From NCBI GenBank assembly GCA_026874595.1, contig CM049307.1:52761370-52825369 (forward strand): DNA of 64,000 bases. The letters are read 5' to 3'. The notes beneath the pieces were generated by a model that saw nothing but the letters and a program-made list of their open reading frames with translations, was not told the DNA's origin and made no database searches. A program made the translations under genes and the position numbers. This stretch comes from Sipunculus nudus (Eukaryota; Annelida; Sipuncula; Golfingiida; Sipunculidae). Position 1 is the first letter of the stretch; every line of letters begins with the position of its first letter. Of the stretch, positions 10,101-56,600 are shown in pieces.

Positions 10101-13100
10101 CAAGGTCTTAAAAGCAAAAAAGGGTCAGGACCATGAACAAGTGGCTATTATTTTGAGGTGGTCCCAAGGAGCAGATGGTTGTTCATTTAGGTATCAAACT
10201 GTTTCTTTTTGTTAATTTCCAGTATGTACATTTCTTGGTTTTCCCTTGTATTTTACTTTTTTATGCCCTCGCCACAAAGTGGCCGGGGCATATAGTTTTA
10301 CCCATGTCCGTCATCCTGTCCTTCCGTCATTCCGTCATTCCGAAATCAAACAGTTGTACAGACTTTTTTTCGCAATGCCTGCAGATATTGGCCTGATTTT
10401 TGGTGTGTAGGCAGATAATAACCAGTTACAGATCGAGTTCATGTTTATTCCCGGTTGACCTACTTTTGACAGTTTTACGGCTCCTAAACTTAGAAAATTT
10501 CATGAAAAAATGAAATTTAAATGACAAATACACATGTACGGATTTTTTTTCGCAATGCCTGCAGATATTGGCCTGATTTTTGGTGTGTAGGCAGATAATG
10601 ACCAGTTACAGATCGAGTTCATGTTTCTTCCCAGTTGACTTACTTTTGACTCTTTTACATCTCCTAAACTTAAAAAATTTCATGAAATATGAAATTTTCA
10701 TGACAAATACACATGTACGGACTTTTTTTCGCAGTGCCTGCAGATATTTGCCTGATTTTTTGTGTGTGGGCAGATATTGACCAGTTACAGATAGAGTTCT
10801 CGTTTCGTCCCGGTTGACCTACTTTTGAACGTTTTACGGCTCCTGAACATAGAAAATTTCATGAAAAATATAAATTTTCATGACAAATACACATGTACAG
10901 ACTTTTTTTTCGCATTGTCTGCAGATATTGGCCTGATTAGCTCAGCTGACTATAAGTCATCTGAGCTATAGTCGTGGTCCTTTGTCCGTCATCCGTCCGT
11001 CCGTCCGGCCATCTGGCCGTCCGTCCATTAACAGGGCACATTTTAAAACCGTTGGACCTACGAATCCAAAATTCTGCATACCATTAGATGTCATTAGAAC
11101 TTCGTTCCTCCGAGATATTAAGGAAAAATCTCCGTTTTCCATAAAAAAGCAATTGTTACACTTCAAGTCTGCCTAATATCAAAACCACTGATCTGTTTTT
11201 GATAATATTTAGTATTCATATTCTTCCATACATTTTCTGTGCACATACCAAGTATTTTGGTCAGTATTTGGTATTATTTTGAAGTTATAGGCCCAAATAT
11301 AATGCAATTTTTAAAAAATCAGGAAATATATTTGCTCACTTAACATGAGAATTGCTGAAGCTGAAGACTTTTTTTTCAGGAATATAACTTTATTTAATCA
11401 AGATTCAATTGTTTGCCCAAAATTAGATCTGAATTTTGCAAATTTTTAAGTTATTAGCATTAATGAAAAATCAACACCTTAAATTTTGTCCAAATTTGGC
11501 AGTGGCACGTTTTTTCCCTGTAAGCACTGTTGATTTAATTTTCACAGCATAAATACATAAGGATTTAATCTTTTAAAATATGAAATTTCAAAGAAATTGT
11601 TTGAAAAGAGTAGCTTTCATTCAAGTTTTCATACACCATGTCAAGTGTTGTTTACATCTGGCCCACCTAGTAGTACAGCCTTCACTTGCATTATGTAACC
11701 CACCCCAGGCAGCTTGCCTTGACCCAGCTTGGCCACTACTAGCAGGCTTCTCCTCTGCCTTGCACTCAACCCCCCCCCCCCCAGCTGGTGCATAAACTAG
11801 ATGAATGTTATAATTTTCTGTATTATATTTTATTCTTGGACATGCCACATTTTAGATTTTGTATTGTACCACCAGGGTTACAATGATTAAAGTGCACATT
11901 TAATTGTGACCACAAAGTGATGTATTGCTATGAAAGTGTGGATGTTCATCAGATAAGTAATGCTTTACTTCAGAAGAGTAAAACTTCACCAGGTGTGAAA
12001 TTGACTATTAATTCCAGTTATTAATTATAGCTGAGATTGTAATTAGCATAATGATATTGTTTGTCCCTCATTCAACCAACAGTGTGTATACTTTATTTGA
12101 AAAGATGTTTTTATTTTATCAAATTTACTGAATCTTTTATTTTATTTCGGTGAATAAAATTAAGCATGTCCTGAAAACTCCAATGTGCAAAACTTTTTTA
12201 AAGGGATTCAAGGAATAATTTTGTAGATGCCATGTTGTGGCATTATTTTCTTTTACATTCAGTTTAAACATTTGATTTAAAAATAATAAAAATATATGTG
12301 TATGCATAATATGACCCAATGTGAGCTACAATCTGGATATATAATGATTGCAACTTAGAATTCTAATATTTTAACTTATATTTTCACTTTTATATTACAA
12401 ATTTATAACACTTGAAAATAAAAAAAATGAATCAGATAAAAACTATTAATGAAAAAAGTGGATATGCTAAAAAAAAATAGGCTTATATATTAACTTAAAT
12501 GCATTATTCCCCTGAAAGTGAAATGAAGGTATTAGTACATTCTGTCCACTTGCCTGTCCATCTGTAAATTTTTCATATGCATCACAGTATCTCAAAACTT
12601 TTACTGTTTTTCTTCATGACAGTCTTGTCAGAGTATTAGTTTGCAATCATATATTGAGAACTTTACTATAACCAAGTAGGAGGGCCCTTTCCTCTTAGCT
12701 TCTCATATGCTTATATAAATATAAAACATTACAATAAAATATTTTTCATATTTTGCATTTGCTAGAATTTCAAACTTTTGTCGTGACCCATGGGTCCTTT
12801 GTTTATATTCTGGATTCTCAACATCATTGGATGGCTAAAACTGAATAAATACCAGACATGGTGCAAATACTTTGCAAATGTATATGAATATGAATATGTA
12901 CTCCATTATAAAATTTCTTGCATAAGATTGGGAATTCAGGTAAAAATGAAAGTATTTGAATACCAGTGCAAATACTTTCAAAATGTATTCATGAATGCAT
13001 ATATTCTATAATATTATTTCAGTTATATTTTATTTAAAAAATCATATGATTCTCTTATTATTTTTAATAAAAATTATATTGGCACAATATTTGTTATTAA

Positions 13101-16100
13101 ATTTTAATAAATAGTAAAAAACTCTTTTATTATATGTGCTGCTTATAAGTAATATGGCCAAATCAAAATCTGTGTGACAATAGCACTCCATTTGTTAATA
13201 AAATAAATGAAATCAATCCTCTTCCCTGTCTCCAAAGATACTATCAAAATCATACATAAGCTAAACACCAATAACTCATAATAAAGCTTATATTTATTAC
13301 CACACAAAACCAGCATATGCCTCTTTCCCAAATCATATTTTTTATCATATATAACAGCTGAGCGCCGTGACCCATGGGTCCCTTGTTTTTGGTTTGTGGG
13401 CAGATATAGACCAGTTACAGATTGAGTTTGCGTTTCGTCCCAGTTGACCTACTTTTGACTGTTTTACGGCTCCTGAACATAGAAAATTTCATGAAAAATA
13501 TGAACTTCCATGACAAATACACATGTACGAATTTTTTTTCGCAATGCCTGCAGATATTGGCCTGATTTTTGGTGTGTGGGCAGATATTGACCAGTTACAG
13601 ATCGAGTTTGCGTTTCGTCCCGGTTGACCCACTTTTGTCCGTTTTACGGCTCCTGAACATAGAAAATTTCATGAAAAATATAAATTTTAATGACAAATAA
13701 AAATGTACAGACTTTTTTTCACAATACCTGCAGATATTGGCCTGATTTTTGGTGTGTGGGTAGATAATGACCAGTTACAGATCGAATTCACGTCTTGTCC
13801 CAGTTGACCTACTTTTGACCATACGACACCACCTGAACGTCAATATTTTTTCAAAATTTAACAAATGTTTCTAATTTGCCCCAGGCGGGGGCATTCGTGT
13901 CATTCTGACACATCTAGTTATAATTAATTCTCTCATTATATGAACATATAATGTTTGACCATTTGAAGATTTATAATGGTTTTTTATATAAACACTTTTA
14001 TCATTCTTTTCCTTTGCAAAACTTTTCCTACCTCATGTTTTGAGCTTGCATTGCTACAGTAGGATTCTGGGGCAAAAACTACATTTATTCATGGCACATT
14101 TATCAGCCAGACATGACCAGTTGTCATTTAGTTCTTTTTGAAAGGGGTACATTTTTGTATGTATGCAGTGTCAAAGCAGTCACTGTTAGCCACTATGTAA
14201 CACCTCCCCCCCCCCCCCCCTGCTTTCTTCTCAAAAAAAAAATTTAAGACAACTCATAATGGAAATACATTGAAAGTATATGTGTTTTGAAATGTTGTAT
14301 ATTTGATCTGCCATATATAAGGGCAAAATCAAGGAAATTTGATTTGTTACATCCTGGGAACCCTGAACTGTGTCAAAAGTTTGTCACTTTGAACATATCC
14401 TTCCTTTATAAATTTAAAGGGAACATTTTGTACTTGGCTCAACTAATGGGAAGTAACATTTGGATTGTACATGGATTCTGTTGAGTTACAACTATTGGTT
14501 ACTTCCTTATGCAAAATAATGCATTTCTCAAGAATCCAGACAGATTTAAGATCATCCAAGTCAATCTGTGCATGATGCACAACCAGCTAGTACAGGTTAT
14601 TGCATTCAGGAACTTTGTTAACATTTTGATTTGAAGAATCAAAGCCGCAGTTTGCAAGACCTGTTTGGAGTAACAGTTTTGCTTCATTGGATGCTTTTTT
14701 ACAACTCAGTTATTGCTGAAAAATTTGTTCCACTGCTTGCTATAGTAATAAAATATTCAACTTGGGAAAATTTTTGTGACAAATGTAGATACTTAAAAGC
14801 ATGCCATATATAATTTGATATGAATATATTTTATTATATGCCACATATATCTTCAAGTCATAACACTATCTGTATCCTCATGTAATTTTTTCACGCCCAT
14901 CTTAGACAGAAAATATTTGTGTATAGACACCATCCTTCCATTTATTTTTAGTGTTGCTATGATAACTCGCCAAACCTTCATGGATTTAAAAAAAAAACTA
15001 CCTATAACGACTAAGTACTAAGCAATAGATTAAGTCACCGGAGAATGAATCTAGACAAAATCCACATTTATTTAATGAGTTCAGAGGTCATTTCTTTGTG
15101 AGACTTCTTTTTGGAATTGCTTTGATGACCAGGAATTTGATTAGTTTTGCTGATATTTAGTAGCAATGTTAAACCATTAAAGTTAATCCCCTTGGATTAA
15201 ATTGGCTGAAAAATCTGTGCATAATAATAAGGTCAGGGGTCACAATACATTTGACAAGCATATTATGCTATCCTGCAGTGCTCTTGTTACCATAATAAAA
15301 AAGATAAGCCCTGTTTACATGGTTAAATCATGTTTCTCTTAAATCATTCTCCATTTTGTCAAGGAATATAAAGCAGAAATTGTTATCTATTTTTCAGTGT
15401 GCAAGTTCTTTGTCACGGAGCTACAATCAAGACTGGATGAAACAGGAAAATCTAAAGAAGTTCTGGAGACAGGACACGGCCTGGAGCTTAAGAAGAAGAG
15501 ATTCAAGTACAACACAGCGTAGGTTTCTGTACATCCAGTGTACACCTAATGCTAAATTTTCTGTATACTACCTGTAAAATAAGGCCACATGTAGGACTGG
15601 CTGAAATTGTATTAGAATACCGGTGGCCTTATAACTCTTATTAGATAGGTCAGTTATAACCAATTGGAATGCTTTTGGTTCACTCAAGGGTGGTCTTAAT
15701 GGACGGGGGGTTTTATCACACTAGTGGTCCGACAGGTTCCTCAGTTTTAACACATAGCCAAACTGATCATTGTGTACCAGTAATTATAAATTATGCACTG
15801 AATATTAGTAAATTTATTAATATATCAATATTTTGAGGTGTCTAAATTGTTGAAAAAATATTAACTATCAGTGTGCTTTATGCATTTAATTTTATGCTGC
15901 AATTCAGAATACACAAAATCATCAGTTACAGTTTCCTTCGAAAACGATGGTTATGGCTCATATGTAGATTTTGTCTTTTGTGTACTTTTTTCATGTATAA
16001 ACTAAATGTTTATCTATGTTTTATTGATTCAGTGAGCTACGCTTGATAGAAGCACTGAATGACCCACACGTATGTGAGAGGATCCTAGAATATAATGTTC

Positions 16101-21516: not shown

Positions 21517-24500
21517 AATGTACATTCACTGAGAGCAAGTTCATGTCACCACTATTGTCCATTCTACAACAAGTCCTGACCTGAACTCTCATTTCTGATG
21601 GTAGGAGCTAATAGATGGTATTGGGGCCCTGAACAGGTTTTCAAATTTAATTGATTTTGGAATTAACAAGTGACCCATGGGTCATGTTTCTCATCTGCCA
21701 TACAGACTGTTGATAATATTTAGAAGATGATATGGGAGCCAGGAGCTTGTCTTTTATTGATTATTGTATGTTTTCATCATGATCTGCTCTGATGTTTCAA
21801 AGTAGGGTGTATGATTAATATTATCACATGCCTGTTAATGTAAGAAATATTGTTCAACAACTCACTAGCATTATTTCAAAAGCTTTATTGAAACATTTTA
21901 GGGCCTCAAGATCATTGTGATATTAAAAATTTTGTACAAAAAGACTTTGAACCGTAAAAGTAATCTGCATATTAATGCATTATGAATGGAATTAAACAAA
22001 TCCTAAGTTGGCATTTAACAACTTCATTCTTCTAATACTGAAATCAGATGATCCAACAAAACCAGCCAGTTATTTATGGTTTGTGAATTTATAATTTATA
22101 GTTAATGGTACCTTAAACTGATGTGTACAAATGAATGTCTTTATATTACATAAAAAAATGATTTTTTTTTCTGTGAGGGCTAATATTTTTTTCAAGTTCA
22201 CTGTTCTTCTGGGATGATGTTTTTTTCTGCTGATTTTAGAGCCTTACCTTTCATCACACCCTGTCAACAGGTATGAGAGATTTAGTAAGGGCTGATTTGC
22301 ACACAAAACCATCTGTTTGTTCCAAAAGGTTCATTAGATGCACTGTATGTTATTCAAGAGTGGCTTGAAATATCAAACACGTTTTGGTGCTTAGCATAAC
22401 CACCATTTAAAAGTCTAACAGCATTTTCGTATTAAGATAGGATCTTGTCTCTGCATGATATTGTTTGTATAATTAAACTAAGCTTGATAAATCACAACCC
22501 TATATCACATACTGAATGAAGCCTCAATGTGGTAGTGGGGTTTCTTATGACAATATCAGGTCTGCACAGAATAATGTTATTTACTGAGATACATCTTTTG
22601 TGATAGCACCAAATGTTGTCTTGTACAAGTGTGGTCATTATGTTAAATAATATCTTTGATTCATTTAGTTGTCTAGGAGGTATGCGTGATTCACCATGGC
22701 AACAATTATGATGTCACAATTGTAACAATGGTGCTCCTGGACTTCAGCCAAAATATTGTTCCTGCAATAGGACCCATATGTTCTTTCATATACTCAAATA
22801 TGAATGGTGTAAACAGAAATATGTCTATCTTTATAAGTATTTATAATAAATTTGTACATGGAATTTCCATTTTACATAAATGTACCATACAGGTCTAAAC
22901 TTAAGAACATGGTTGTTTCAGTATAATTTACAGTTACAGCAACATATTCCCTACAGGTTGGTTTCTGTAGAATTTTTCAAAGGAATTACAGGTTATACTT
23001 CATTGTATTGTGGACTGCATGGTAACATTTTCTTAAAACTGAGAGTAAAATAATAATTCTTTTAATTGGTAGAATGGCTAAAGGCACTGCCGTCGAAAAC
23101 CCAATTCATGTAGCATTTGATATTTGTATTGTGTTCTGTTTTGTGTTAATAGGTGGCATTTAGGGAGGTTGTTTTTAAATTTAGTGCCATCTTGCCATAT
23201 TCCCCACATCTCATTTCATGTTTTCATTCATAACCCTGTCATGTCAATAAACATAATTCTAAAGTTTATTTCATAGGATCATCTTTAAATTGGTCATGTA
23301 TAACTGATACATTGAATCAAATGTACACTTTTTTCTTAATAAAAAACTGTCAAAAGAATTTGGCCTTGAATACTGGTATGTATAATATGATTGAAAAGCA
23401 TGGGTAAGAATCTACTGATCAGCAGTTTAATTCATATGTTCAGCACCAGAGTGCAGCACCTCTGTGCTACACTGGTGGTCCTATCACTGGTGGTGAATGT
23501 ACAGGATTTCTCTGACCACGACAACAAAACAGCCAAAATTTAAAATTTTAGGTACACAAAAATGGTAAAAATGTCATCTAAGAATGTTAATAGAGACCTA
23601 CATCAAGGCTTACTGGCAGTCCTCAAGTGAATGTCTGCTTAAGGAGAGAGAGTCACTATGATGACCGTAATTTCACTACGGCTGATTCTCTACAATCTCA
23701 TTGTTATGCAAAGGACCCCGACTCATCCTTACTTCTTTTTCCATAAGGGTGTTCTGTTGTAGGGGTCCAATGTATATATAGGGGTATGTGTAATGGTATA
23801 TAAATTATCCCACAAGTGAATTTTTATAGTTGACCCCACATAAATAGTTAAAACTCAAGCACAAAATATAGTACCTTTAGGGGCTAGAGGACCTTTTTCA
23901 TGGACAGTGTTCCATGCATTTCATGAAAGCAAAATCCCTGATTTTACCCTCAATGAATTTTGAAAATTCCAGAAATTTCATTAAGTTTGTATTCTTTGTG
24001 TGTGTGTGGGGGGGGGGGGGGGGGGGGGATAGGAAAGTGGTTTTTTTTCCAGGGGGGGGGGGGGGGCAGGAAGGAGTAACACTGATTTTGGTAGAGTTTT
24101 CACAGGAGTCATGAGAGAGTATACAGAAACCAGCCCACTTTCTCTTCAGCGCCATTCATATTTCCTCATCCCTGAAAGGTTTCCCTTGACAATTATTCTC
24201 AAGTTTCCTTTTCCTTGACTGTATCAAGAAAAACTAAGGTTTTCAGGCTGGTTGGGAACTTTGATGGGCTGGCTATGTTGTGGGAAATGATATGATTAAA
24301 ACTTTGATATAGCTGGTCACCATTCCTACCATTCAAGGGCATGCCGAAGTTCGGCTGCCAAGGGTTATCTTCACTGTGCACCTTTACTATGATTATAACA
24401 TTTCATACAAATTTGACCATGAATTTTCATTATTTAGTAATTGTTGATAAAACAACTTTAAAAAATGGAACACTTTCGGCAAGGGTATATTGTATGGTAT

Positions 24501-28582: not shown

Positions 28583-28640
28583 ATATTAATGATCAATGGT
28601 ATCTTTCAACGATATTAATGATCAATGGTATCTTTCAACG
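28583..28640 (+). repeat. Perfect 30-bp tandem duplication
   Basis: The block GATATTAATGATCAATGG plus TATCTTTCAAC occurs twice in direct succession. Confidence 0.9.
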
Positions 28641-28791
28641 CCTATGAACAACAGTTCTATTATGCAAAATGCCCTAAAACAACATTTAAATTAGACCTAA
28701 ATATGGTTTTGAAACTTTCTGGAGTACATGATGTGCATAAATGAGCAAAGTGTTACAACATTTTATTAATCATAATTATCTTAGCTGATGA

Positions 28792-35600: not shown

Positions 35601-38600
35601 TGCAGGAGCTATTCGGCCAACTACCTGTGTAAAAAGTAATGCCTTACCTTGCTTTGATTTTGTAATCCAAAATATGACAAGTTACAGCGTCTACGACTTA
35701 TTCCTTGCCTAAGAACTGATAATAAACAAGCCAGTCAACCTTATGATGTCAGTCAATTGAAGGCGAGACGCAAGCCATCACTGTGACGTCTTTGTGATGT
35801 CACTGTTGTTTAACAAACATAAAATGCAGCCATAGACATGGAAAGTGTACCATTGAGGAATTTACTGTCCAGCAGTGCCACGAAGATGCCATCCACTGTA
35901 TTTCAGCATAAATAACACAAAAAAGTTGCAAAGTAAATACGTTTTAAATTATATATAACTACCAAACACATTTTCTGTTTATCTACTTCAGGCCAAAGGG
36001 CATTTTAAAAGAATATTCTTAAAATAATTATTGCAAAAAAACCAGGGGACAAGAGGTTTTGGGACAGACTTTAGTATATTCATACCTATTTTAGGATGGA
36101 ATGCCATGGGATTCCGATCCAAACATGCTTTGATGGCTCTAGATCTCTCATCCTCATGTTCCAAATTGTTAAAACAGTTCTGGCAGTTACAGTTGCTGCA
36201 GAACTCACCATTTGCAAAACAGTCACAGTATCTGGAAATAAAACATAATAAATGTCTGATTATATAAAGTATTTGATGTAACAACTAGCAAAATTAAAAA
36301 AAAAAAACTTCTAACTATCAGGTCTGTGGCAGCTAGCTGTGCTTTCACAGACCTTGATTCTGCAAATAATGGTTGGCCTGGTTGGACTTAGGGATTCAGC
36401 CATACAGCAATGGATGATATGCAAATACCACAAAAATATGGTAAGGATGGAATAGCCATGGGAGCTTTGTTATCATAATAATTTATGATTCTAGAGTCCT
36501 TTTCATATTAGTTGCTTGTTTAGCTTTTTAATTTGCACCTTTCCACAAATTGTAAATTTTATCTAAATACACAATTCTTTGTAAGAATGGACACTGGATT
36601 GGGATATTACTAATGTTAAACTGATGAAACTTATACTTAATACAACCTGCAAATTTTCCAATTCAGGCAGCAGTCATGTTCCCAAAGGGATGCTACTATC
36701 AATTAGTCCTGTAAATTGTGAGGGCCTTCAGCAGGCTTGGGTCAAGAACATGTACTTGTACTTGGTATTTGTACTTAAGTACAAATATCTTAGTACTTGC
36801 CTTGTTCTTGTACTTGGCACTTTTTACCAAGTACAGTACTTGAACTGTACTTGTACTTGCCAAAAATGCACTTGAAAAATCAAGTTCCAGTCAAGTACAA
36901 GATTGAAAAAAATTGCTACTAACCATAAACACAGCATGAGGAAACCTTGTGATGTAATGGACAAAATAGAGGTAATGGCAGCATGACCTGTGAGTAGATC
37001 TTCTGAGTGTACCTGTGCACACCTCCAGGCTATAAGCCATGGTAAATGACTCAAATGAGTAGGTTTAGAATGTAATGAGTAAATCCTGACTTGAGTTTTC
37101 ATAGCTGAATGGCAGCATTCTCTAGATCTGTGAGCAGATCTTCTGAGTAACCCTGTGCACACCTCGGGGCTAATTAGCCATGGTAAATGAGTAGGTTTAG
37201 AATGTAAGGAGCAAGTCCTGACTAGAGTTTTCACAGCTGAAACAAACACAAGTCAAGAAACTCAGGCAGCCTCATTGGCATATCAACTGTGAGTTGTGCA
37301 CACCTTACAAGGGGCATAAAATCACTATGTAAGAAGTGCCATCAGGGGGAGCATCAGAATTTCAGAAATAGACTGAACAGTTGTCAACGTGTGGCGGATA
37401 CAGACCATGGCATCTGCCATATGGAGCCAATATACCAAGCCTGAAAATTTGTTGTGTTTTTCTTTATCTGAAATAATTAAATGATAAAAGTACTTGTACT
37501 TAAGTACAGACTCCTGTACTTGTACATAAGTACACCATTAAATTTCTGTACTTGTACTTGTGAGAAGCTGAAGTACTGAGTACAGACCCCCTGTACTTTA
37601 CCCAAGCCTGGCCTTCAGAATTTATTCATTGATCAATTCTTTACCTTCAATTCAATTCTCGAATCAATTTTTACTTAAGTAGTAAATTTCAGACTTAAAA
37701 AATTTTTTTTTTATCAAAATGGATGTAAGTAAGTTTACACAAATAAAAGAATAATTTAGCTTTCCCTCTGTTTGTCGCCGCCATATATGTTTCCATGCAA
37801 GTTGGGTGGTCACCAGCATTCATTTAAAGTAGGTTTAGAGCAGATACACCATTAGAAATTTGACACTGCAAACTGCTCCATCAAATTTCTATGCTCATGG
37901 AGGACTTTGGGATGGTACATGCAAAAAAAATAATAATCAAATTAAATTGATTCAGTGGTTAATAATTCATTACAATTTACTTGAGGGCTTGCAATTCAAT
38001 GCATCAATTTTTCGAAGTGTTGCCACACCCCTACTATCTACAGCCCAACATAAATGAGGGCACTGTCCTTACTAGAAACCCTTTCTGCCAGATATATCTG
38101 TTAGTTTAACAAACTTTGTGTGAAGGCTAGCGTGGGCATTACTTTTCATTTTCGGATATATATTAAAACCTCCAAATGCATTGATTCAAACATGCTAACT
38201 GCTGGACAAATGGGCTGATCTATCATAGATATATTTAATTAAAATGAAACTTACAACTTCAGGCACTGGGACTTGGTGCAATTACATGGTTTCCTCTGTC
38301 GCTGACTGTTCCCTTCAGAGGTACTGCTACAATACAAATAGTAAGGCATGACTAAACACTCAATGCATAAACCCCAACCCCACTTACACTTTATAGAGAA
38401 ATTGAATTTTAGAGACAACTGCCTGAAATGCTGTTCTGGGACTTACCTATTTAGTAATTCAGAACTACACTATATCTTAAGCTTCACAAAGTCAGCATCA
38501 ATTTATTAAATTATACATGTCCTCTAATGTAGGCAATGATACTTTGCACTTTATCATTTATTTAACTAGATGTGTCGGAACGACACGAATGCCCCCGCCT

Positions 38601-41600
38601 TGGGCAAATTAGAAACATTTGTAAAATTTTGAAAATTTTTTTAAGTTCAGGAGGTGTCATATGGTCAAAAGTAGGTCAACAAGGGCAAAATGCAAACTCG
38701 ATCTGTAACGGGTCATTATCAAGCAACACACCAAAAATCATGCCAGTATATGCAGGCATTGTGAAAAAAAGTCCATACATGTGCATTTTCCATAAAAATT
38801 TCTGTCTTTCATGAAATTTTCTATGTTTAGGAGCCGTAAAACAATCAAAAGTAGGTCAACCGGGATGAAATGCAAACTCGATCTGTAACTGTCATTATCT
38901 GCCCACACATAAAAAATCAGGGTGGTATCTGCAGGCACTGAGGAAAATAAGTAAGTACATATGCATTTGTTATGAAAATTTATATTTTTCATGAAACTTT
39001 CTATGTTCAGGAGCAGTCAAATGGTCAAAAGTAGGTCAACTGAGAGAAAACAAGAACTCGATCTGTAACTGGTCATTATCTGCCTACACACCAAAAATCA
39101 GGCCCGTATCTGCAGGCACTGTGAAAAAAAGTCCATACATATGCACCTTTTCATGAAATTTTCTTTGTTAGAGCACCGTCAAACGGTCAAAAATAGGTCA
39201 ACTGGGACAAAACGTGAACTTGATCTGTAACTGGTCATTATCTGCCCACACACCAAAAATCAGGCCAATATCTGCAGGTATTGTGAAGAAAAGTCTGTAC
39301 AAGTCTATTTGTCATGAAAATTTATGTTTTACATGAAATTTTCTATGTTCAGGAGCCTTAAAACAGTCAAAAGTAGGTCAACCAGGACGAAATGCGAACT
39401 CAATCTGTAACTGGTCAATATCTGGCCACACACCAAAAATCAGGCCAATATCTGCAGGCATTGCGAAAAGAAGTCCGTACATGTGTATTTGTCATGATAT
39501 TTCATATTTTTCATGAAATTTTCTATGTTCAGGAGCCGTAAAACGGTCAAAAGTAGGTCAACCAGGACGAAACGCGAACTAGATCTGTAACAGGTCTATA
39601 TCTGCCCACACACAAAAAATCAGGCCAATATCTGCAGGCATTGCGAAAAAAAGTCTGTACATGTGTATCTTTCATGAATATTTCTATTTTTCATGAAATT
39701 TTCTATGTTTGTACAACGGTCAAAAGTAGGTCAACCGGGACGAAACGCGAACTTGATCTGTAACTGGTCTATATTTGCCCACACACCAAAAATCAGGCCA
39801 ATATCTGCAGGCATTGCGAAAAAAAGTCCGTACATGTGTATCTGTCATGAATATTTCTATTTTTCATTAAATTTTCTAAGTTTAGGAGCCGTTAAACAGT
39901 CAAAAGTAGGTCAACCGGGACGAAACGCGAACTCGATCTGTAACTGGTCTATATCTGTCCACACACCAAAAATCAGGCCAATATCTGCAGGCACTGTGAA
40001 AAAAAGTCCGTACATGTGTATTTGTCATGAAATTTCATATTTTTCATGAAATTTTCTATGTTCAGGAGCCGTAAAACGGTCAAAAGTAGGTCAACCAGGA
40101 CGAAACGTGAACTCGATCTGTAACTGGTCTATATCTGCTCACACACCAAAAATCAGGCCAATCTCGCAGGCATTGCGAAAAAAAGTCCGTACATGTGTAT
40201 CTGTCATGAATATTTCTATTTTTCATTAAATTTTCTAAGTTTAGGAGCTGTAAAACGGTCAAAAGTAGGTCAACCGGGACGAAACGCGAACTCGATCTGT
40301 AACTGGTCTATATCTGCCCACACACCAAAAATTAGGCCAATATCTGCAGGCACTGCGAAAAAAAGTCCGTACAACTGTTTGATTTCGGAATGACGGAAGG
40401 ACGGAATGACGGAATGACAGAATGACGGAATGACGGACATGGGTAAAACTATATGCCCCGGCCACTTTGTGGCGGGGGCATAATAAAATCTAGGTAAATA
40501 TTCATGTCAATTTAATATGATACAATGTTTTTTAACACTAAGTTATTCATATCTTTCTTTAGAATGGAACGTGTTGTATCTTTTTATCACCAAAAAAGTA
40601 TTAATTGAAGAACAGATCTTGCATCTTAAAACCTGGTATTGTTACACAAGTATGGTTAAATTTGGTATATTCTTATGCTTAATAACTTGACAATGTAGTA
40701 CAAATGAACAACCTGAATGATTCCCATAGTCTGTCTTAGCTGACAGTAAACCTAATGTTAATCAGGTCAGTGTGACCTATTTTTCTTTTATCAAAACATG
40801 ATCACAGTGCCTATAGATACACTTCTGGTGCTATCTACTTTCAACTTTGGAAGCAGAACTTTTAGAGTACTGCCCTGAGCCCTGCTGCATATTATGCCAT
40901 TGTGACCTACTTTTTTTATTAAATGAAACCATCATATTTTAGTGCTTCTGACATATTTTATTAACATTAGAGAAATGTCACCAGTTTACTGACCTGGCCT
41001 GCTTGTTTGAGCTGGCAGTGTGTGTGCTGGCAGGCCCTGGCAGAAAACTGGCTTCTTGTTTTTGAGGAGGTTGTTGCAGCACCTGCTGACCTCCCATGGT
41101 CTGCTGCAGCTGTGTAAAATGAAAGACAGTGCTGTCAAACTGCTGTTCTCATAATATTCCATGAAAAAAATATTACGCTTTTTCTTTAAACAGGGAAAGT
41201 TATTTGTTGTTTGGTAATAAAATCTGATTTTACATCTTACAAACTGTACGTTATTCACCATTATGCTCTGGGTGTTGACATGCTGTTTCCAAACATTTAC
41301 ATGCAAAAAATAAATGCAAATATAAGCTGCAATAGATCAGAGAATAGAAGTGTTATTTAATTCTCTAACACTACCAGACACAAATTTATGCCTTGTTCAG
41401 CTTCAGGATCATAATTAATTTTGTTTATGTGGAATGAAACACACTTAAATTTACATTTGAAACAACATTAATAGCTTGCAAATACAACCAGGAAACAAAG
41501 CAAGCCTGTATGAACAAATTTCAGATAATATGATACACAGTTTTTTATGGTGGGGAAATGGCATAAATGGTATAACAGTTTATATGTGTTTGTCGATATA

Positions 41601-44600
41601 TTATCTTTGTCCTGTCCTCACTGACCTGCTCTACATACTGCGCTGGTACAATGGCGAAGCCCTGAACGCCTTGTAGGTTTTGGCCACCAGAGGATATGAT
41701 GGTGGTACCAGGAGGAAACTGTGCGAGAGAACTGCTGTTTCCTGATTGGCTGCCGGAGTTGACGGTGGGCCGTATCTGAACCTGGGAGGTCGCTGGTAAA
41801 AGCACGCGCTGAGCTTGTGCCCCACTTAACTTTGGCAATACCTGGAGATAATGTTACGTATCACTGCAAGTGTGCATACAAATTATCAGTTACAGGTTAC
41901 AAACACAAACAAATTCACCAAGGATAATGGACTTTTAACAGATAAATAAATTCCTGAAGATGAAAATATGCTCTCGATAATATTGGTTAATTTAAAAAAA
42001 AAATTAAATAATAATTTTAGTTGATATGATTATGAAACATGCATTCAGGTACATCTGAGAAACAAATAAATGATTCTAGTACTTGCAAGGAGTACAGGGT
42101 TTTACTGTCACCATCAATCACCTGGCCAGCAAAAATCCATGAAAGTAAATAAAACTACTGCAACAGTATTCTACAGCAAATTTGTCCCAGGGACTCTTCA
42201 AATATATTAAATAATACACTTTTAAGACTCGTATGATACAACGATATGCCAGCCAATGCAAGAGCACCCATGTGATTGTCAATGGCTCTGACAAGAATCA
42301 AGGCAATGATCCATGCCTCTGAATATAAACTGACACTATTACTTATGGATCTGGCAAGAATTAATTTAAAAATTAAATGCAAATTTCATGAACTGGCAAA
42401 GCAAGGATAAGAGGGTTTCCAAAGAAAATTGAATACAAACTAAGCACAGCTGAAACATGTATCTTTTCCACTGGCTTCATCAAGACAATGCCATATTTCA
42501 ATTATTGTTTACCCGGGTTATGCTGCTTCTATGCAGTTATTCAAATATAAATTAGGGACTCATCTGTCATATAAATACGGATATTCTACATCATAGGGCC
42601 TAAAGCCAAGAAATCTGTCTGCAGAGGTCACAATTTCAGGCTTATTACATATGTGACACATTAAATGTCAAACTCATGTGACCTTTAGTCTTGCCTACCT
42701 GTTGACCCTGGTTAACAGAGACTGATCTGTACTGTCCTCCAGATGACCCAGATGACAGGGCAGGTGCTATAGGCTTAGCTTGTTGAGGAGTTGCTGTGGC
42801 TGTTCTGGTGACTGCACCTGTGAGACATCAAGGATTAGCCATGGCTAAACATAGGGCAAACTGTTAAGCCTCTTTCACATAATATGTAACCTGTAATCTG
42901 TATGTGTATACCTTTCAATAATATGATCATGAAATAAAACATTAGAAACACATTCTAATTATGTGGCCTCTTGTTGGCAATGTAATATTTCTATAACTTT
43001 ATAAAGGAAAGATAATTTATTTAGTCTATGGTAGTTTGAGGAACATGTCTGCCAAAGTCAGGCTCAGATAACATCTTTCGTCTCAGCTAATATTAGAATA
43101 CAGTCAGAGCCCAACTAAACAGTTGCAGATATTATGCTTAACTCCATGTTGCCAAGTTACGCCCCCTGGTATTTATAGTGGCACTTGGTCTTTAACTTTT
43201 TCATATAAAACATCAGGAAACAATCTAATTATGTGACCTGTTGTTGGAAATGTAATATTTGTATAAAGTGTCATATAAACAAAGGAAGCAGATTATACAG
43301 ACACTGAACTCTGCTATATTTAAATATGTATTGAACAAGACACAGTGACACATATCACTCTGTTTTTACCATTACCTTTTGAGGATGACTGAGTTGGCGG
43401 CAGACTGTTTGAGAGGCCTAGTTTCAATTTTGCTGGGGCAACATTCAACCAGTTATGTTCATGGTATAAATGTTTGAGGTATAAACTAGACATTTCTTGG
43501 CACCGCAAGTGCCAGAGTATCCCCAGACATAGTAGGCCCCCCCTTTAAGAAAAGACGCCCATTTTTAGCAGCATATACTGACACTTGGCATATTTATTGT
43601 TTCTTCCATCTAACAATCCACAATCTTGTTGAAGATGTTGGTCCTGTGACCTTGATCTTTTTAAAGATGTGTCCTTTGACCTTGACCTTTGACCTCATGA
43701 CCCCAAAATCAATTTGGGTCTTGCTTTTCCAATGGGACATATGCAAGTCAAGTTTGAAATCTATACATCAATAAAGCAGGAATTATCATCCAGAAACTAA
43801 TATTTTTTGACAGATGGCTCCTGTGACCTTTACCTTTGACCTTGTGACCTTAAATTGATAGTTTTCTTCCTCTCTTGGCAGGAGAACTATATGTGCAAGA
43901 TGAAAGATCTGAGATGAAATGTTTGGCTGAAAATGCATCCACATCTTTTTAAAGATGTGTCCTGTGACCTTGACCTTTGACCTCATGACCCCAAAATCAA
44001 TTTGGGTCTTGCCTTTCCAATCGGACATATACAAGTCAAGTTTGAAATCCATACATCAATAAAAGCAGGAATTATCATCCAGAAACTAATTTTTGGACAG
44101 ATGGCTCCTGTGACCTTCACCTTTGACCATGTAACCTCAAAACTGATAGGGGTCTTCCACTCTAAACAGGTGAACTATATGTGCAAGATGAAAGATCTGA
44201 GATGAATTGTTTGGCTGAAAATGCATCCATAATCTTTTAAAAGAGGTTTCCTGTGACCTTGACCTTTGACCTCATGACCCCAAATTCAATTTGGTTCTTG
44301 CTTTTCCAATGGGTCAAATACAAGTCAAGTTTGAAATCCATACATCAATAAAAGATGGAATTATCATCCAGAAACTAATTTTTGGACAGATGGCTCCTGT
44401 GACCTTCACCTTTGACCTTGTGACCTCAAAATTGATAGAGGTCTTCCCCTCTTGGCAGGTGAACTATATGTGCAAGATGAAAGATCTGAGATGAAATGTT
44501 TGGCTGAAAATGCATCCACATCTTTTTAAAGATGTGTCCTGTGACCTTGACCTTTGACCTCATGACCCCAAAATCAATTTGGGTCTTGTTTTTCCAATGG

Positions 44601-47600
44601 GACATATACAAGTCAAGTTTGAAATCCATACATCAATAAAAGCAGGAATTATCATCCAGAAACTAATTTTTGGACAGATGGCTCCTGTGACCTTCACCTT
44701 TGACCTTGTGACCTCAAAACTGACAGGGGTCTTCCACTCTTGGCAGGTGAACTATATGTGCAAGATGAAAGATCTGAGATGAATTGTTTCGCTGAAAATG
44801 CATCCATAATGTTTGTAAAGAGGTTTCTGTGACCTTGACCTTTGACCTTATGACCCTAGAACCTATAGGGTTCTTACTTTAGTGGTGGGCCATACATAAG
44901 TCATGTTTGAAATCCATATGGCTAAGTTTGGCTTAAAGTTTGGCTTAAAATGCATCCACAGTATCTTTAAAAATGCCAGTCCAGTGACCTTGACCTTTGA
45001 CCTCATGACCCTAGAACCTATAGGGTTCTTACTTTAGTGGTGGGCCATACATAAGTCATGTTTGAAATCCATATGGCTATCAACACTGGAGATATCATAA
45101 GAGATGTGTGATTTTCACCATATATGGCAATATTCAAGGTCAAGGCCACTATCATAGGAAAGGTCATGACCCCAATTTAAATAAACATCATCCCATAACC
45201 CATACCTATGTATATGCATAATATAAAAGAAATCTGTCCATTAGTTTTTGACTTATAATGCTCACAGTACTGTAAGGCCCATAACCCATACCTATGTATA
45301 TGCATAATATAAAAGAAATCTGTCCATTAGTTTTTGACTTATAATGCTCACAGTACTGTAAGGTGGCAATTTTGGGGGTATTAAACGGCACGAAAACAAG
45401 TAAAGAATAATAGGTGGCGCCACCAGTTTCTGGAACATGACAACCCTATCCATGATCTTCCATCAACTTGATTTTGGGATAAATCCATGCAAGATTTCTG
45501 GAGATATTAAAGAATTTGTGTGATTTTCCCCAAAATTGGATCTATTCAAGGTCAAGGACATTCTCCTAGTAAAGGTCATGACCTCATTTTAAATAGGCGT
45601 CGTCCTCTTACCCATATCTATACATATACCAAGTTGGGTAAAGTTCCGTGAAATATTTTTTGGGTTATCGCGCCAACAAGATTTATATGGGGCGGCGGGA
45701 CCGGTATGAAAACATAGTATCCCCCGACTTTGTCTGGGGATACAATGATTGATTTTATTCATGATTGCATGGTAATGAATGTAACTGTCAACATTTCTGG
45801 GTGACATCCCCTCATTCATCTTTGTACAGAAAAGTAACATAGACTGATAGAGGAGTCCAAACTGTACAAAATATATACTGATATTAGGGGTGGGTAGTCC
45901 TGAGCAGTGTAATCCTGCAAAATGATCATATAAAGTGGAACCCCACAAACTCCTACAAAATACCTGGATTGTATATTTGGGACCAAGAAAAGTGGTTGTA
46001 ATTGTGGGGGTGGTCGCAATTGCAGGGTGGTCTCAAGGCGGGGTTCCACTGTATGTCAATCATAACATATAAGCATTAAGGAGCACCGGTGTGGGAGAGA
46101 CAGTTTAATTTAATTTGAGGCCACTGTTTTTATTTAATGATCTTTGCTTTGATGTCATGATCAGTATTAAAACATAAACCTAGAAATGCCTGATAATGAC
46201 TTACCTGACGCATGTGATGTTGGTGCAGTCACCAAGCGTACATACGGGAATTTGCTGCCTGCCACCTGCATGGGCTGAACATTAGTGGCACCGCTTGATA
46301 TTGGCAGAAATAACTGTTTTGTAACAGTACTACTAGTGACCACATTGTTGTTCATCGGAGATATCAGTGATGTTTTACCCTGTAAATATATATCAGACTT
46401 CAGTTGTAATATGAATGTGTAGGTATTAATCCTGTGTATTTCCAGGCAAATAAGGAGACAGATTCATGATACAGCATTGAAATATGTCAATCAGTTTGCA
46501 AACATCCTTTCTTACATATTACACAAGAAGGAATAACCATACTGCATGCTGAATCAACATGATCAACTCTACCCAGGATCTGGTGACCCCTAGCCTAGTA
46601 TCAAAGAAGACACTACAAATAACTTGATATTGAATATTACAATACGTTCAGTCTAACAAAATATTTTTATTTATTCTTTGCTATTTCTATGTCTGTGTAC
46701 TTAACTAAGCTTTTTTAACAGTCATAAAATCATGAAAGCTATCCAGGATGTATTCGCATGCCAAATGTCAGGTGAATAAGTCCAACCACTGCAGAGTTAT
46801 GAGTGATTTTAACTCAAATCAAACTAACAGATGGACGCTGCGCAAAAACGGTTGTTGGTCGCACCACCAGTTTCTTGTATGATAAAGAGCCATGTGAGAT
46901 CTAAACACATGCAAAATTTCAGGAAGATAAGTCAAACCAGTCCAGAGATATTAGTATGGATGTCTGCAGCATGAACATGAATGTAGGTGGTGCCACCTGT
47001 CATAAAACAAAGAAAACTATCCAGGATGTATACCAATGCCAAATTTAAGGTGAACAAGTCCAACCACTGCAGAGATATGAGTGATTTTAACTCAAGGCAG
47101 TCTAACAGATGGACACTGCGCAAAAATGGTTTCAGATGGCACCACCAGTTAATTGAATGATATAAAGCTACCTAAAAGCTACACTGGTGTAAAATTTCAG
47201 CCTGATCGGTCAAATGAGTCCATAATGTGCAAACACAGACACACAGATGGATGCACTGCAGAAAGCAAAGGGCAGAGGTCAACACAAAATGGTGAGGCAC
47301 AAGTTCACTTGTGACCTGATAACTGGGTTAAGTTTTTGAAAAAATCGGTCTAGTGGTCTCAGAGTTCTCTGGAAACATAGATGGCAGCGGCAGTGGAACC
47401 CAGTCAAAAACATAGTATCCGCAAAACTTTGTTTTGGCGGATACAATAAACTATTGGTAAGTACTTATGGTGAGTTTCATGAAATCCTGGTAAGTTATCG
47501 CAGCGACACTAAAAGTTAACGGCCTATGGAAAGACAGACTGACGGACAGACTATGGGTATACCATAATACGTCCCCTCATAGACAGGCATATAAAAATAC

Positions 47601-50600
47601 AATCTAACAATCTTTTAAATGTCTCCAAAAGATTGATAGGCCATCATACAAGGGGATTCAACGGGTGCGAAATACAGCCAGATACAATCTTCAAAGAGAA
47701 ACTTTATAGGAAATGACCAATAAAAAAGTGACAAATTTGCTTCTGTAAATATTAATTGCATATGGTGTTCAATTACACATAACCCCTGCCTGGAATGTCT
47801 GTCAAGTGCTGCCCTAAATGAGTACTAATAAATATCCTGAAACAACTGTGGTCCAAGATAATCAGATACAAGTACTTATTCCCATTTTCTGTGACAGCTT
47901 ATTAATAACAGCCTACTTTGACACCTGTCAACATTATGCAATATCACCAACAGGCATTACTACTTTTGAGGTGAAATGACCCTTTTCTGTGTGCCTAGCT
48001 GTCAGTCTGTGCAATTGCACTAGCTGTGTTTTCACGAGAGCTTAACCCAATCTCCTAGTAAATCATGTCTCATGTGAAAAGGTCACTGATAAAAATTTGC
48101 AGTAGAAGGTATACTTCACCAAGTCGAGGTCGAAGTCATTCATCTTAAAGATTATAAACTCAATTTAAATAGGGCTTTGCCTTCTGACCCATATCTATGC
48201 ACTATAAGTATCTTAAAGAACATTTCTTATATTAGCTGGTTGTAGACAACTTACAACAAGAAAAAGATCTTGTGCTGAAAGACCAAAAAAGATGGTGCAT
48301 AAAATAAAACAAGACCCCCCCCCCCCCCCATCAGCACCTCTAGCAACCAACAAAGCTTTAGCTCAGACGACTTTTAGTCAGCTCAGCTACACAATACAAT
48401 AGATGATCTGTCAATCCATCAGTTGTTTTTAAGTGGTTTGGATATCCATGACCAAAGGTATAGATAAAGGTAGTGGGGGTTTATAGTTTGATATCACGTA
48501 TGATATAAGTCTCATTGGACTTAATTTTACACTTTGCCTTCCTGGTCTTTCGGGCCTGTCATTCTAGTAGATTTTCTCATCACTTTGTGGAGCATACACC
48601 AAGCAGCCACACATAGCTCTAGAAGGTTATTCGTTCTACATTTGTCTGACACCTATGTGTGACCAGTACCCATTCACTCCTGGGTGAAGAGAGCACACTC
48701 TTATGGTAAAGACTTTGGTTACCAGTCTTAGCGTGGAAAGCGGTCAGATCGGGACACAAACTAACTACCTCGTGGTCATGAGTCCAGCGCACTAACCATT
48801 ACCCCACCACGACCAACACTAACAATTCCAGAATAAACCATGTTGACACTACTGAGAGACAATGATCTCCTGTTTGAATTTTTTAGTGTTTCTGTGTTGA
48901 AAATTTAACTGATTTTATTCAACCTATTCATGACAACAAGGATAGGTCTGGCTGAAAAGCATATCTAAACTATGACTCCATGCAATATGTTCACCGATTT
49001 AACCAGGCAGAACCTTCTCAATTCTGTTGGGCAGAGGGAGAATCAAAGAGATCATTATGTGGAGTCTGGGCTACTTAGGTACCCTCACATATATCAGCTA
49101 CACCTCAACCATCACACCTTGGGATGATGTGCCAATTCAGCCCACTCTGCCATCAAGACTTGTTTGTGCCTGTTTATATTTTTCAGTCAATAAATAAAGA
49201 AGACATCAATGCTAGTCTGATTATCTTCTTTCTAATAGAATGAACCCTGCCTCATCCTGCCATTAACATATAATCTGTGATATGTACACAGATGCAAATT
49301 AATTGACCTATCCATGAACTCTATGTGACCTTAACTGCATATTCATTCAATGAATAATCATAAGCATTGAACTTACGAGAAACCAATCAGGTGACCTTTG
49401 GCATTGTTAACTGTCAATCATCTGACAAGCACACAATCTGTATATTTTTTGCAGAGCTCTGCCAAACAGAATATTTGTAATCTGTACCAGTGCCCATGTT
49501 TGGCATATTTTCTGGATATTTTTTTTAAGCAAAGGAGACCATATAAAAAGTTCTAGGCCAAAGTTTGCAGGAGCCATTCCTCAGACTACCAAGTGTATAA
49601 TAATGTTTTACTTGGCACGTAATTCATCCCAGACAAATAATCCAAAATATGGCATGACAGTTCACAATGACAGCGATATTCAACAATGGAGAACAGCGAC
49701 TCAAGTTGATGACATCAGTCAATGCGACATCATGCGTCATCAACTTTTGTGATGTCATTATTGTCTTATAAACAGCTGTTGCAACCATGGACATGGAAGA
49801 CCTCCTTTGTAGGAGAGTTTTAGGGGCTCATTATAATAACTAGGTTAAACCGGGCGGAGCATATGGGCTGTGATGGATAGGTCAATTCTTGACACATACA
49901 AAAACGTTGTAAAACTTGTTATGTAAAAGGGGCCCAATCACCAATCTGACCTTTATTTATAATCCCGTGGAGCTTTCATAAAAATAGGCGAGATAACGCA
50001 TATATCACCGCACACAGGCTGCTTGTTTTGTTTATATCAATGTGTTTATAATAGGCACTATGCTAGGACTCCTGTGTATGGAAGTGCACATTTTGAAAGC
50101 AACACATCCATCAGATTGTGAATAAAAGTGAAACTTGTGTAATAAGACTACCCATGGGACTGGCCAAAAGTGGTCTTAATAGACAGGTGGTATTTCAGTC
50201 AGGTTCCACTGTATATTGTTCATGAGTTGTCTTCATTCTTCAGTGACAGTGATTGTATTCACCACAGTATTTAAACCTTTCTAGAGATATATCTAATACT
50301 AAGAGACCTATTTGATGACAAGGTCACTAAACGTAGACTTTATTTTAGATAGGCTTCAATCTCTCACCCATGTTACATGTAAAAAAAAAATGTTCATTCA
50401 AATATTTTTTGAGTTAACGATTACTGTGATGGCATGACTGTTCTAGAGCTTTAGTATCCTAGAAGTTTCAGTCTGAGGATACAATGTAATCAACTGGCCT
50501 CAGGCCAAAGGTACATAACTGGCCCCAGACCAAAGGTACACACCATCACAAATGTACTGAGAATTCCTGTGCTGGTAATTCTTTCCCTGTAACTTGTACA

Positions 50601-53600: not shown

Positions 53601-56600
53601 GCTGGTGGCATTCTGTTATCTGTAGGGGTAGATGAAACTGAAGAGGCAAGAAAATTTGACCGTGGACCGTCCACTACAACCCATACTTAAAGCCACAACT
53701 GGACTCAAACCCAGGTCACAAGTAAAGAGTTCCCACTCAACCGTCCAAGCATCAATATAATGTGAAGTCACTCTTGAAGTAAAGGTCATGACCCCAATAC
53801 ACAGGAATCTTTCCTCTAGCCCATAAAGATCTATGCATAATTTAAAATAAAATCTAGCTAATTAGCTTTAGAATTAGAGTTATAACTTAATTTTATATTT
53901 TCTCTCACCTTTTTTTCAGTGGCAGTGAAAGGGAGATAATCTACTTGAAACTGTAACAAGGCCTACAGGCCTAATGCGACCTGTGCAAAGTTTAGGAGTA
54001 TGAATGGAGGTTTATTTTTAAAATTTAATATTGATCCTCCTAAGTCCTGCATATCTACCTAAGGCATTATGATTTCAGCAAAATGGACGTTTCTGACCTG
54101 CAAGTTTCGGACTAGGACATTTTAAAACCAGAATATGGGTAGTCGACAAGCCACTAAGTGTATCAGAAGAACTGAGGGTGGGAAGGGTGAAGTGAGGCAT
54201 GGATTAAGTGGCAAGGGGAATAGAGCGTGGTGTGTTGCATATAAGCATGGATGTCTGCAGCTTAAACGTGAATGTAGGTGGTGCCACCTGTCATAAAATC
54301 GAGAAAATTGTCCAGGATGTATAAACCTGCAAAATTTCAGGTGGATAAGTCAAATCACTGCCGAGATATTTCAGGTGGATAAGTCAAACCACTGCTGAGA
54401 TATGAGTGATTTTAACCTAAGGCAGATGAACAGATGGATCCTGTGCATAAATGGTTGCAGGTGGCACCACCAGTTTTGCCTATGGTGAAGAGCTATGTGA
54501 GATCTATACAAATGCAAAATTTTGGCCTAATTGGTCAAACGGTTTCCGAGATATGAGCTTGGATGTCTGCAGAGTAAATGTGAATGTAGGTGGCGCCACC
54601 TTTCATAAAATCGAGAAACCTGTCCATGATGTATAAACCTGCAAAATTTCAGGTGGATAAGTCAAACCACTGCTGAGATATGAGCAATTTTATCTCAAGG
54701 CAGATAAAGATGGACGCTGTGCATAAGTGGTTGCAGATGGCGCCTCCAGTTTTGCCTATGATGTAGAGCTATGTGAGATCTATACACATGCAAAATTTTG
54801 GCCAAATCGGTCAAATGGTTCCCGAGATTTGAGCTTGGATGTCTGCAGAGTAAACGTGAATGTAGGTGGCGCCACCTGTCATAAAATCGAGAAAGCTGTC
54901 AATGATGTAAAATACCTGCAAAATTTCAGGTGGATAAGTCAAACCACTGCCGAGATATGAGTGATTTTATCCCAAGGCAGATCAACAGATGGACGCTGTG
55001 CATAAATGGTTGCAGGTGGCACCACCAGTTTTGCCTATGATGAAGAGCTATGAGAGATCTATACACATGCAAAATTTTGGCCTAATCGGTCAAACAGTTC
55101 CCGAGATATGAGCTTGGATGTCTGCAGAGTAAATGTATATGTAGGTGGCGACACCTGTCATAAAATCTGCGCCATCGCATAAGCTCACAGGTTCGCTAAA
55201 AAGAGGAATGAAGGATGCTCAACCAGATACAAGATGAAGCGATCCAAGAACTTCAGTCATACTGATTTTTAGAGAAAAATAAAAATTATCCATCATTCCC
55301 TGTGAGATATATTTTGGCATGATTTTCATGAAGAAAAATAATTCAAGATCATTCTCATAGAAAAAAAACATACACCCCAACCTTTAACGCAAGCTTTGTC
55401 CTCTGACCCTCAACTGATGCATGAATGGAAAAAAACTAGAATATCAGCAAAAGCTGACAAAAAGCCCTCAGCCAAAGAATGTTGTTTATGGGTTGTAACA
55501 GGAACAAGTATAAAATATTTGTTCTCACATTGTTGTATATATCTGTACAAGTTATAAATTTGAACTGAAGAGGTATGTAAGTACCTTTGCAGGTCTGGCA
55601 CCCCCAAACTCATGCAGCACTTAGAGATCAAGGCAAATGACCATACCATGTTTTATAACAATCCACCCAATGGTTCCTGAGAAAAAAGCTCCTAAGTTTT
55701 TTTTTTCTAATTATAAGCTCTGTGACCATGAAAAATAGGTCAAGGTCACCCATCTTTAAACTTGATCAAGATTTTGTTGAGATGCATCAGCACTGGAGAA
55801 ATGAAGGTCCTGTATTGAATAATTTAAGAGATATCCTGCTCACAAGGCCAAAATTGAAAACAATGATAATAAATTTATTAAAAATAACTATAGGTGGTGC
55901 CCCGAAACTTGTACCGCACTAAGAAATCATCAGGGCAAATGCTCATATAAAGTTTCATAACAAAACACCCAGTGGTTCCTGAGAAATAAGCACCTAAGTT
56001 TTTTTTCTAATTATAAGCTGTCACCTTGAAAAGTAGGTCAAGGTTACCCTTCTTTAAACTTGACTGAGATTGTGTTGATGCTGATAATGAAGATCAGGAC
56101 TGTGTTGAATACTTTTTCAGATATCCCGTTTAAATTGAAAATATCTGATAAAAATTCTAAAAAAAAAAAATCAGAAATTGTAGGTGGTGCTCTGAAACTC
56201 GTACAGCAGTTACAGACCATCAGTGGCAGTGCCAATAATCATAGCAAGTTTGATAACAATCCACCAAAGGGTTCCTGAGAATTAAGCTTCTACGTTTTTT
56301 TCTATATATGCTCTCAGACTGAAACGTAGAAAAATATGTCAAGGAAACAGTGACGTCATCCATCTTTGAACTTGACCGAGATTTTTTTTTATATACATCT
56401 GCACCAAAGAAATATAATTCCTACATTGAATCCTTTCAGAGAGATCCCGCTCACAAGGAAAAATTTAACAGATTCTGGCCAGCTGGACAGCTTGGGTGAA
56501 GACAATAGCCCTTCAGCCTCTAAGGCTGAGGGCTAAAAAAAAACTGAAGATTAGGTGACCAGTGTTGTAGAGATAAGGTGATAAGGATCTTTGTGGTCAT

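What the first reader, a model, noticed from the sequence alone, without database searches (positions are those of the whole stretch)
10263..56534. Four repeat families with unrelated bodies share one end grammar, consistent with Helentron-like rolling-circle elements
Families A (10263-13917, 38566-40481), B (667-2589, 10939-13385), C (43486-45743) and D (55436-56534) differ in body sequence but share a layout. The 5' tip is a hairpin containing the subterminal repeat, followed by a TATAG/TATG/TATTG-like motif. The 3' side has an inverted copy of the tip, a separate short hairpin, then CTAG or CTTG. Outside bases are T. Known Helentron-associated elements have subterminal inverted repeats, a 3' hairpin and T-T insertion. 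The shared rule suggests one replication/helicase enzyme mobilises all four. This may define an unrecorded superfamily grouping in this genome.
Basis: partly seen in the sequence, partly recalled or inferred. Interest (0 to 1): 0.8.

Follow-up and report, generated by a model that had tools for sequence, protein, structure and literature searches.

The report
Helentron-type mobile repeats with matching partners
These four repeat families are non-coding passengers of a known class of copying jumping DNA (Helentrons); for two of them the genome also holds large enzyme-coding elements with the same ends, and the two end types go with two different enzyme lineages rather than one shared enzyme.

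Summary
In detail: all six copies sit at the stated coordinates with the stated end layout, each flanked by at least TT on both sides. The layout exceeds chance, and the 3' ends recur 3,254 to 29,312 times in the genome with zero matches to the reversed pattern. The layout is not unrecorded: it is the published Helitron2 / Helentron-HINE anatomy (PMC3627910, PMC4067079, oyster Cg_HINE PMC7492417).

What is added is partners. Family A's ends and 180-bp array flank a 12.4-kb Rep-helicase-endonuclease Helentron on C5; a second copy of that enzyme on C3 (96% identical) has the same 3' variant about 1.6 kb downstream and the same array upstream. A family-B-like 3' end lies in sense downstream of Rep at 22 of 45 sampled loci, against 3 antisense; one 14.2-kb Helentron has both B ends. 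A and B enzymes are only 34-36% identical, so 'one enzyme for all four' is contradicted for A versus B. No C or D end was found at the 45 loci. Verdict: new members of a known kind, with a useful partner link.

The parts
10263..13917 (+). Family A HINE copy A1 (5' tip to CTAG), interrupted by B2 at 10939-13385; 180-bp tandem array
10263..10295 (+). A 5' hairpin followed by ATAG
13887..13917 (+). A 3' inverted copy, hairpin and CTAG
38566..40481 (-). Family A HINE copy A2 with 180-bp array
10939..13385 (+). Family B HINE copy B2, nested in a T-run of A1
667..2589 (-). Family B HINE copy B1
43486..45743 (-). Family C HINE copy with 288-bp array
55436..56534 (-). Family D HINE copy; a 78-nt unit recurs 3 times about 300 nt apart
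46721..48392 (-). Probable further B-like copy: degenerate B 5' tip (28/32) near 48356-48387 and, on its 3' side, repeats related to the B Helentron L007; no 3' end recognised
   Evidence: extent is my inference

Best explanation
A-D are non-autonomous Helentrons (HINEs) of the Helitron2 type. Inferred mechanism, as the cited papers propose: a Rep nuclease fused to a PIF1 helicase nicks at the tip, one strand is peeled off and copied, copying ends where the 3' inverted copy can pair with the 5' tip and the 3' hairpin precedes CTAG/CTTG, and the strand is joined between T residues. Shown here: the ends, their copy number, the sharp 3' boundary of B, the T flanks, and end-matched Rep-helicase-endonuclease elements for A (both ends at one locus, 3' end and array at a second) and B (both ends at one locus, 3' ends at many). 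The A partner carries the 180-bp array itself. Different ends go with different enzyme lineages on one architecture. All enzymatic steps are inferred.
For: End layout and T flanks. Genome counts with control 0. Conservation of 32 distinct B 3' ends stops at CTWG|T. A Helentron C5:20300944-20313327: A tip 30/31, array, Rep/PIF1/endonuclease pieces, A 3' end 29/31. Second A-type enzyme C3:41768140-41770658 (96%) with the same 35-nt 3' variant 1,595 nt downstream (1,618 nt at C5); these are the only 2 of 9 matches without mismatch; array and upstream region also at C3, 93-98%. B-like 3' end in sense at 22 of 45 loci, antisense at 3 of 45; L007 has both B ends 14.2 kb apart. Rep motif FxxRGSPHxH type in the open frames, the S being the Helentron mark in PMC4067079.
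Against: No C or D end at 45 sampled loci. The B 3' hairpin does not fold better than shuffles. L011 and L032, the closest B 3' matches, show no B 5' tip in 10 and 7.7 kb upstream. The tip of the C3 A copy was not seen. The A enzyme frames at C5 are broken. TT duplication cannot be told from no duplication at the nested site. Seven of the nine 35-mer matches lie near no Rep match listed.
Confidence: 0.88

Rival explanations
1. One Rep-helicase recognises the shared architecture rather than the letters and mobilises all four families.
For: One layout in four families; C and D have thousands of 3' ends but no partner at 45 sampled loci, as if they borrowed an enzyme.
Against: A and B ends flank enzymes 34-36% identical; within B, end and enzyme similarity correlate, r 0.38, reached by 25 of 9,999 permutations.
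Confidence: 0.1
2. The A and B ends next to Rep genes are unrelated HINE copies that landed there, so no partner is shown.
For: HINEs are dense; three antisense B ends beside Rep genes and a complete sense A copy near L011 are such neighbours.
Against: 22 sense against 3 antisense of 45 loci; the A 3' variant lies at the same distance from both A-type enzymes and its upstream body is unlike the HINE.
Confidence: 0.05
3. Cut-and-paste miniature transposons with terminal inverted repeats.
For: Inverted repeats near both ends.
Against: The 3' inverted copy lies some 30-40 nt inside the 3' end; no duplication beyond TT at the nested site; end-matched elements code for Rep-helicase.
Confidence: 0.02
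4. Canonical Helitrons (Helitron1).
For: 3' hairpin followed by CTAG, as in canonical CTRR ends.
Against: No 5' TC in any of six copies, a 5' hairpin, T on both sides; Rep motif with S and an endonuclease domain.
Confidence: 0.02

Closest known systems
Cg_HINE elements of Crassostrea gigas (PMC7492417; passages and results part 1 seen)
   Same: 5' subterminal repeat with a complementary copy (hairpin), GTCC-type microsatellite, tandem array of 138-181-bp monomers, 3' subterminal repeat plus palindrome, T-rich target, no target duplication
   Different: Other sequences as far as read (no sequence comparison was possible); C has a 288-bp array; autonomous partners linked here for A and B, unresolved there
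Helentron / HINE, DINE-1 (PMC4067079; results parts 1-2 seen)
   Same: Subterminal inverted repeats, 3' palindrome, TT insertion, Rep-PIF1-endonuclease partner with S in Rep motif 2
   Different: No RPA gene looked for or seen in the Pfam scan of the tested frames; A and B partners have a DUF6570 match instead
Helitron2 (PMC3627910; passages seen)
   Same: 5' hairpin that includes the 5' inverted repeat, 3' inverted repeat upstream of a second hairpin, T at the 5' end; pairing model for termination; compensatory changes also reported there
   Different: Only the sequences; no structural novelty in the ends

Membership tests
Helentron/HINE | Subterminal inverted repeats at both ends | tested here: met
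   six copies
Helentron/HINE | Palindrome/hairpin near the 3' end | tested here: met
   A, C, D fold above shuffles; B is a palindrome but z +0.86
Helentron/HINE | Insertion in TT, T on both sides | tested here: met
   6 of 6 copies
Helentron/HINE | No target-site duplication | tested here: inconclusive
   nested site: 2+5 T against 5-6 T in 12 monomers, so nothing longer than TT; joined-flank searches of B1 and D found no empty site
Helentron/HINE | Autonomous partner with the same ends: family A | tested here: met
   both ends at C5, 3' end and array at C3
Helentron/HINE | Autonomous partner with the same ends: family B | tested here: met
   L007 both ends; sense 3' ends at 22 of 45 loci; for the exact B 3' type (L011, L032) the 5' tip was not found
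Helentron/HINE | Autonomous partner with the same ends: families C and D | tested here: inconclusive
   0 of 45 loci
Helentron/HINE | Rep motif 2 with S and a C-terminal endonuclease in the partner | tested here: met
   RGSPHxH in seven frames and in L030x; Exo_endo_phos in L001 and L030, weak and below cut-off in L007, absent from the L012 piece of L011
Helentron/HINE | Rolling-circle transposition (nicking, peel-off, circle) | not testable with these tools
   needs an assay
Helitron2 | Hairpin at both ends, 5' hairpin built from the 5' inverted repeat | tested here: met
Helitron1 (canonical) | 5' TC, no 5' hairpin, A|T insertion | tested here: not met
   tips AT, AG, GT; 5' hairpins; T outside
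Cut-and-paste MITE | Inverted repeats at the very ends and a fixed target duplication | tested here: not met
   3' copy lies inside, nothing duplicated beyond TT at one nested site

The most novel reading that the evidence does not exclude
Helentrons of this genome have split into several enzyme lineages with separate end codes on one fixed architecture; the satellite-like arrays of HINEs are part of the autonomous element and inherited from it rather than captured later; and families C and D, with thousands of 3' ends each, are moved by a lineage still unseen, lost, or borrowed.
Probability: 0.45. Interest if true: 0.55.

Novelty: new member of a known kind. Interest (0 to 1): 0.4.

Why it matters
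Two oyster papers could not tie HINEs to an enzyme: PMC7492417 (passages) says the relationship 'remains unresolved'; PMC7992393 (passages) found no autonomous element and took the copies to be inactive. Here two of four families are tied to Rep-helicase elements by their ends, and family A also by its satellite array. That makes two questions testable: does each Rep recognise only its own ends, and do autonomous Helentrons seed dispersed satellite arrays? In two searches of the held library (Helentron + bivalve, 13 listed; Helentron + mollus + autonomous partner, 2 listed) no listed title or abstract start reports such a partner in a mollusc. I saw listings only, except for the papers named, and subscription journals and Repbase are not held.

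Tried and rejected
X-lineage Rep-helicases (L001, L003, L005, L013; frames of 2,235, 2,250, 2,426 and 890 + 1,436 aa; OTU and endonuclease in L001) as partner of C or D: no A-D end found in 14 kb (L001), 20 kb (L005, L013) or 26 kb (L003). A 9.76-kb repeated unit on C1 with C ends looked like tandem autonomous C elements; it holds a C HINE and B pieces and no tblastn match to the Rep-helicase queries. No B 5' end upstream of L011 (10 kb) or L032 (7.7 kb). Joined-flank empty sites for B1 and D: only the copies' own flanks. The first fuzzy scan timed out and was redone without gaps.

Limits and dropped rows. The 45 loci were hand-picked from the 143 rows, not drawn at random; 150 of 195 candidates were scored there. 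The 22 of 45 counts sense hits of at least 24/31; scans ran at 0.65-0.68, and windows differed (14 kb, 4.5 kb, 2 kb). The Mantel test used 12 B loci with a protein hit and an end, none. The pair count used 24 distinct 31-mers out of 32 distinct flanked ends. One search scored 54 of 536 candidates and 39 of 10,783, so 'two A-type enzymes' holds among those scored.
Full report
WHAT WAS CLAIMED. Four repeat families with unrelated bodies share one end layout, read as Helentron-like, with one enzyme for all and perhaps an unrecorded grouping.

THE OBSERVATION. All coordinates check. A: 5' tip hairpin starting ATGCCCYCGCC, then ATAG; on the 3' side an inverted copy, hairpin GTGTC-GACAC and CTAG. 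B: hairpin starting AGCTCAGCTGAC, then ATAG; inverted copy, palindrome GACCCATGGGTC, CTTG. C: hairpin starting GTATCCCC, then TATG; inverted copy, hairpin TGGCAC-GTGCCA, CTAG. D: hairpin starting AGCCCTCAGCC, then ATTG; inverted copy, hairpin TCAGC-GCTGA, CTAG. Six of six copies have TT or more outside both ends. A rule scan gives five clusters, four of them claimed copies, against a mean of 0.07 in 30 shuffles (rule made after the fact; A1 and B1 missed). Single-strand folding supports the four 5' hairpins and the 3' hairpins of A, C and D, not that of B. A and B carry a short GTCC-like microsatellite just inside the 5' tip; A and C carry tandem arrays of 180 and 288 bp.

GENOME SCALE. The window lies on C2 of a 1.43-Gb assembly. 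3' ends: A 5,090, B 29,312, C 3,864, D 3,254 by 24-mer or 9 by 39-mer; reversed control 0 in each. Thirty-two distinct B 3' ends in hand are alike up to CTWG|T and unlike beyond. With the 5' part of the A Helentron as query, 24 of 57 match rows begin at query 112-115, in the T-run before the tip, and apart from the query's own locus none begins before 107.

NESTED INSERTION. B2 lies in the T-run of an A monomer. Twelve other monomers of the window have 5 or 6 T there; around B2 there are 2 T before and 5 T after. Either the element brought two T or TT was duplicated; nothing longer was. Searches with the joined flanks of B1 and D found only those flanks.

PARTNERS OF B. Pfam Helitron_like_N gives 143 match rows in the genome (150 of 195 candidates scored), none inside this window. 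I read flanks at 45 hand-picked loci. A B-like 3' end of at least 24/31 lies in sense at 22 of 45 (2 of 7, 11 of 18, 9 of 20) and in antisense at 3 of 45; those three also have the sense end. One locus, L007 at C17:35625479-35639637 (-), has a B 5' tip (31/32) with microsatellite and a B 3' end (27/31) 14.2 kb apart, around a 2,342-aa open frame; 1,833 aa of it match DUF6570, Rep and PIF1, and Exo_endo_phos weakly, below its cut-off. An older B tip (27/32) lies 0.7 kb further out. L011 has the exact 31/31 B 3' end and 114 nt at 83% to window B1 near its 3' end, but no B 5' tip in 10 kb; L032 (30/31) shows none in 7.7 kb.

PARTNERS OF A. At C5:20300944-20313327 stand an A tip (30/31), a microsatellite, the 180-bp array, broken frames with DUF6570, Rep, PIF1 and endonuclease matches, and an A 3' end (29/31) whose upstream body differs from the HINE. 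Among the candidates scored (54 of 536) only one other locus holds this enzyme type: C3:41768140-41770658, 94-96% identical; the next by score is 40%. The 35-nt 3' variant of C5 has nine genome matches; the two without mismatch lie 1,618 and 1,595 nt downstream of those two enzymes. The other seven, with 1-3 mismatches, lie near no Rep match that I was shown. The C3 locus also has the array and the region between array and Rep, at 93-98%, covering query 581-3251; neither the tip (query about 115) nor the outer flank is listed there, so the C3 tip is not shown.

ONE ENZYME? The A enzyme is 36% (L007) and 34% (L011) identical to B enzymes over Rep-helicase and 39% to the X lineage; L007 and L011 are 62% identical to each other. 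Within B, end and enzyme similarity correlate (12 loci, r 0.38, reached by 25 of 9,999 permutations). So: one architecture, several enzyme lineages with their own ends. C and D ends: 0 of 45 loci. The X lineage showed no A-D end in 14-26 kb. C and D may use an unsampled, lost or non-cognate enzyme.

STRUCTURE CONSERVATION. Among 24 distinct B 31-mers one hairpin pair is A-T in 12, G-C in 11 and unpaired in 1. The covariation score is 0.184 against 0.107 in shuffles (0 of 500 reach it) and at most 0.091 when slid. The number of pairs changed on both sides (1) and of further pair types (3) do not exceed shuffles (412 and 500 of 500 reach them). This is one pair, possibly one event inherited by a subfamily.

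KNOWN OR NEW. The end rule is that of Helitron2 (PMC3627910, passages); with endonuclease and TT it is Helentron/HINE (PMC4067079). Oyster Cg_HINEs have the same modules, microsatellite type included (PMC7492417). Added here: end-matched autonomous partners for two families, the satellite array inside the A partner, and evidence that ends and enzymes travel together. These are new members of a known kind with a useful link, not a new superfamily.

MECHANISM. Shown: ends, boundaries, T flanks, end-matched enzymes. Inferred from the cited models: nicking by Rep, strand displacement, termination by pairing of the 3' copy with the 5' tip, joining at T. Not shown: activity, circles, strand polarity.

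Noticed in passing
L018 (reverse strand) 1886 and 1931; L026 1369 and 1958; L032 1051 and 1228: Two sense B-like 3' ends in a row downstream of Rep, 45, 589 and 177 nt apart; perhaps read-through past a first 3' end to a second.
   Followed up: no
L001-L006, L013-L014, L059-L060: X-lineage Rep-helicases with long open frames, an OTU domain in L001, 69-nt repeats in or near the frame start and 148- and 319-bp arrays downstream; ends not found.
   Followed up: partly
G000:C1:63.71-63.75 Mb (L061): C 3' ends spaced 9.76 kb apart: a repeated block that holds a C HINE and B pieces, no Rep-helicase match.
   Followed up: yes
window 46721-48392 and 54239-55222: About 276-bp repeats with GTAGGTGGCGCCACC are related to repeats between the B 5' tip and Rep frame of L007, so probably Helentron-borne.
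   Followed up: partly
window 21667-21697 and 56851-56881, minus strand: Degenerate B-like 3' ends (25/31 and 24/31) without a recognised 5' tip.
   Followed up: no
window 29808-30493 and 31185-31656: Minisatellites of about 18/35/71 bp and 43 bp.
   Followed up: no
G000:C7:48.52-48.59 Mb: Three near-identical Rep genes about 30-32 kb apart, likely a recent repeated block.
   Followed up: no
L007 extended, 1641 and 2365: Two B 5' tips 0.7 kb apart upstream of one Rep gene; nested ends or an older neighbour.
   Followed up: no
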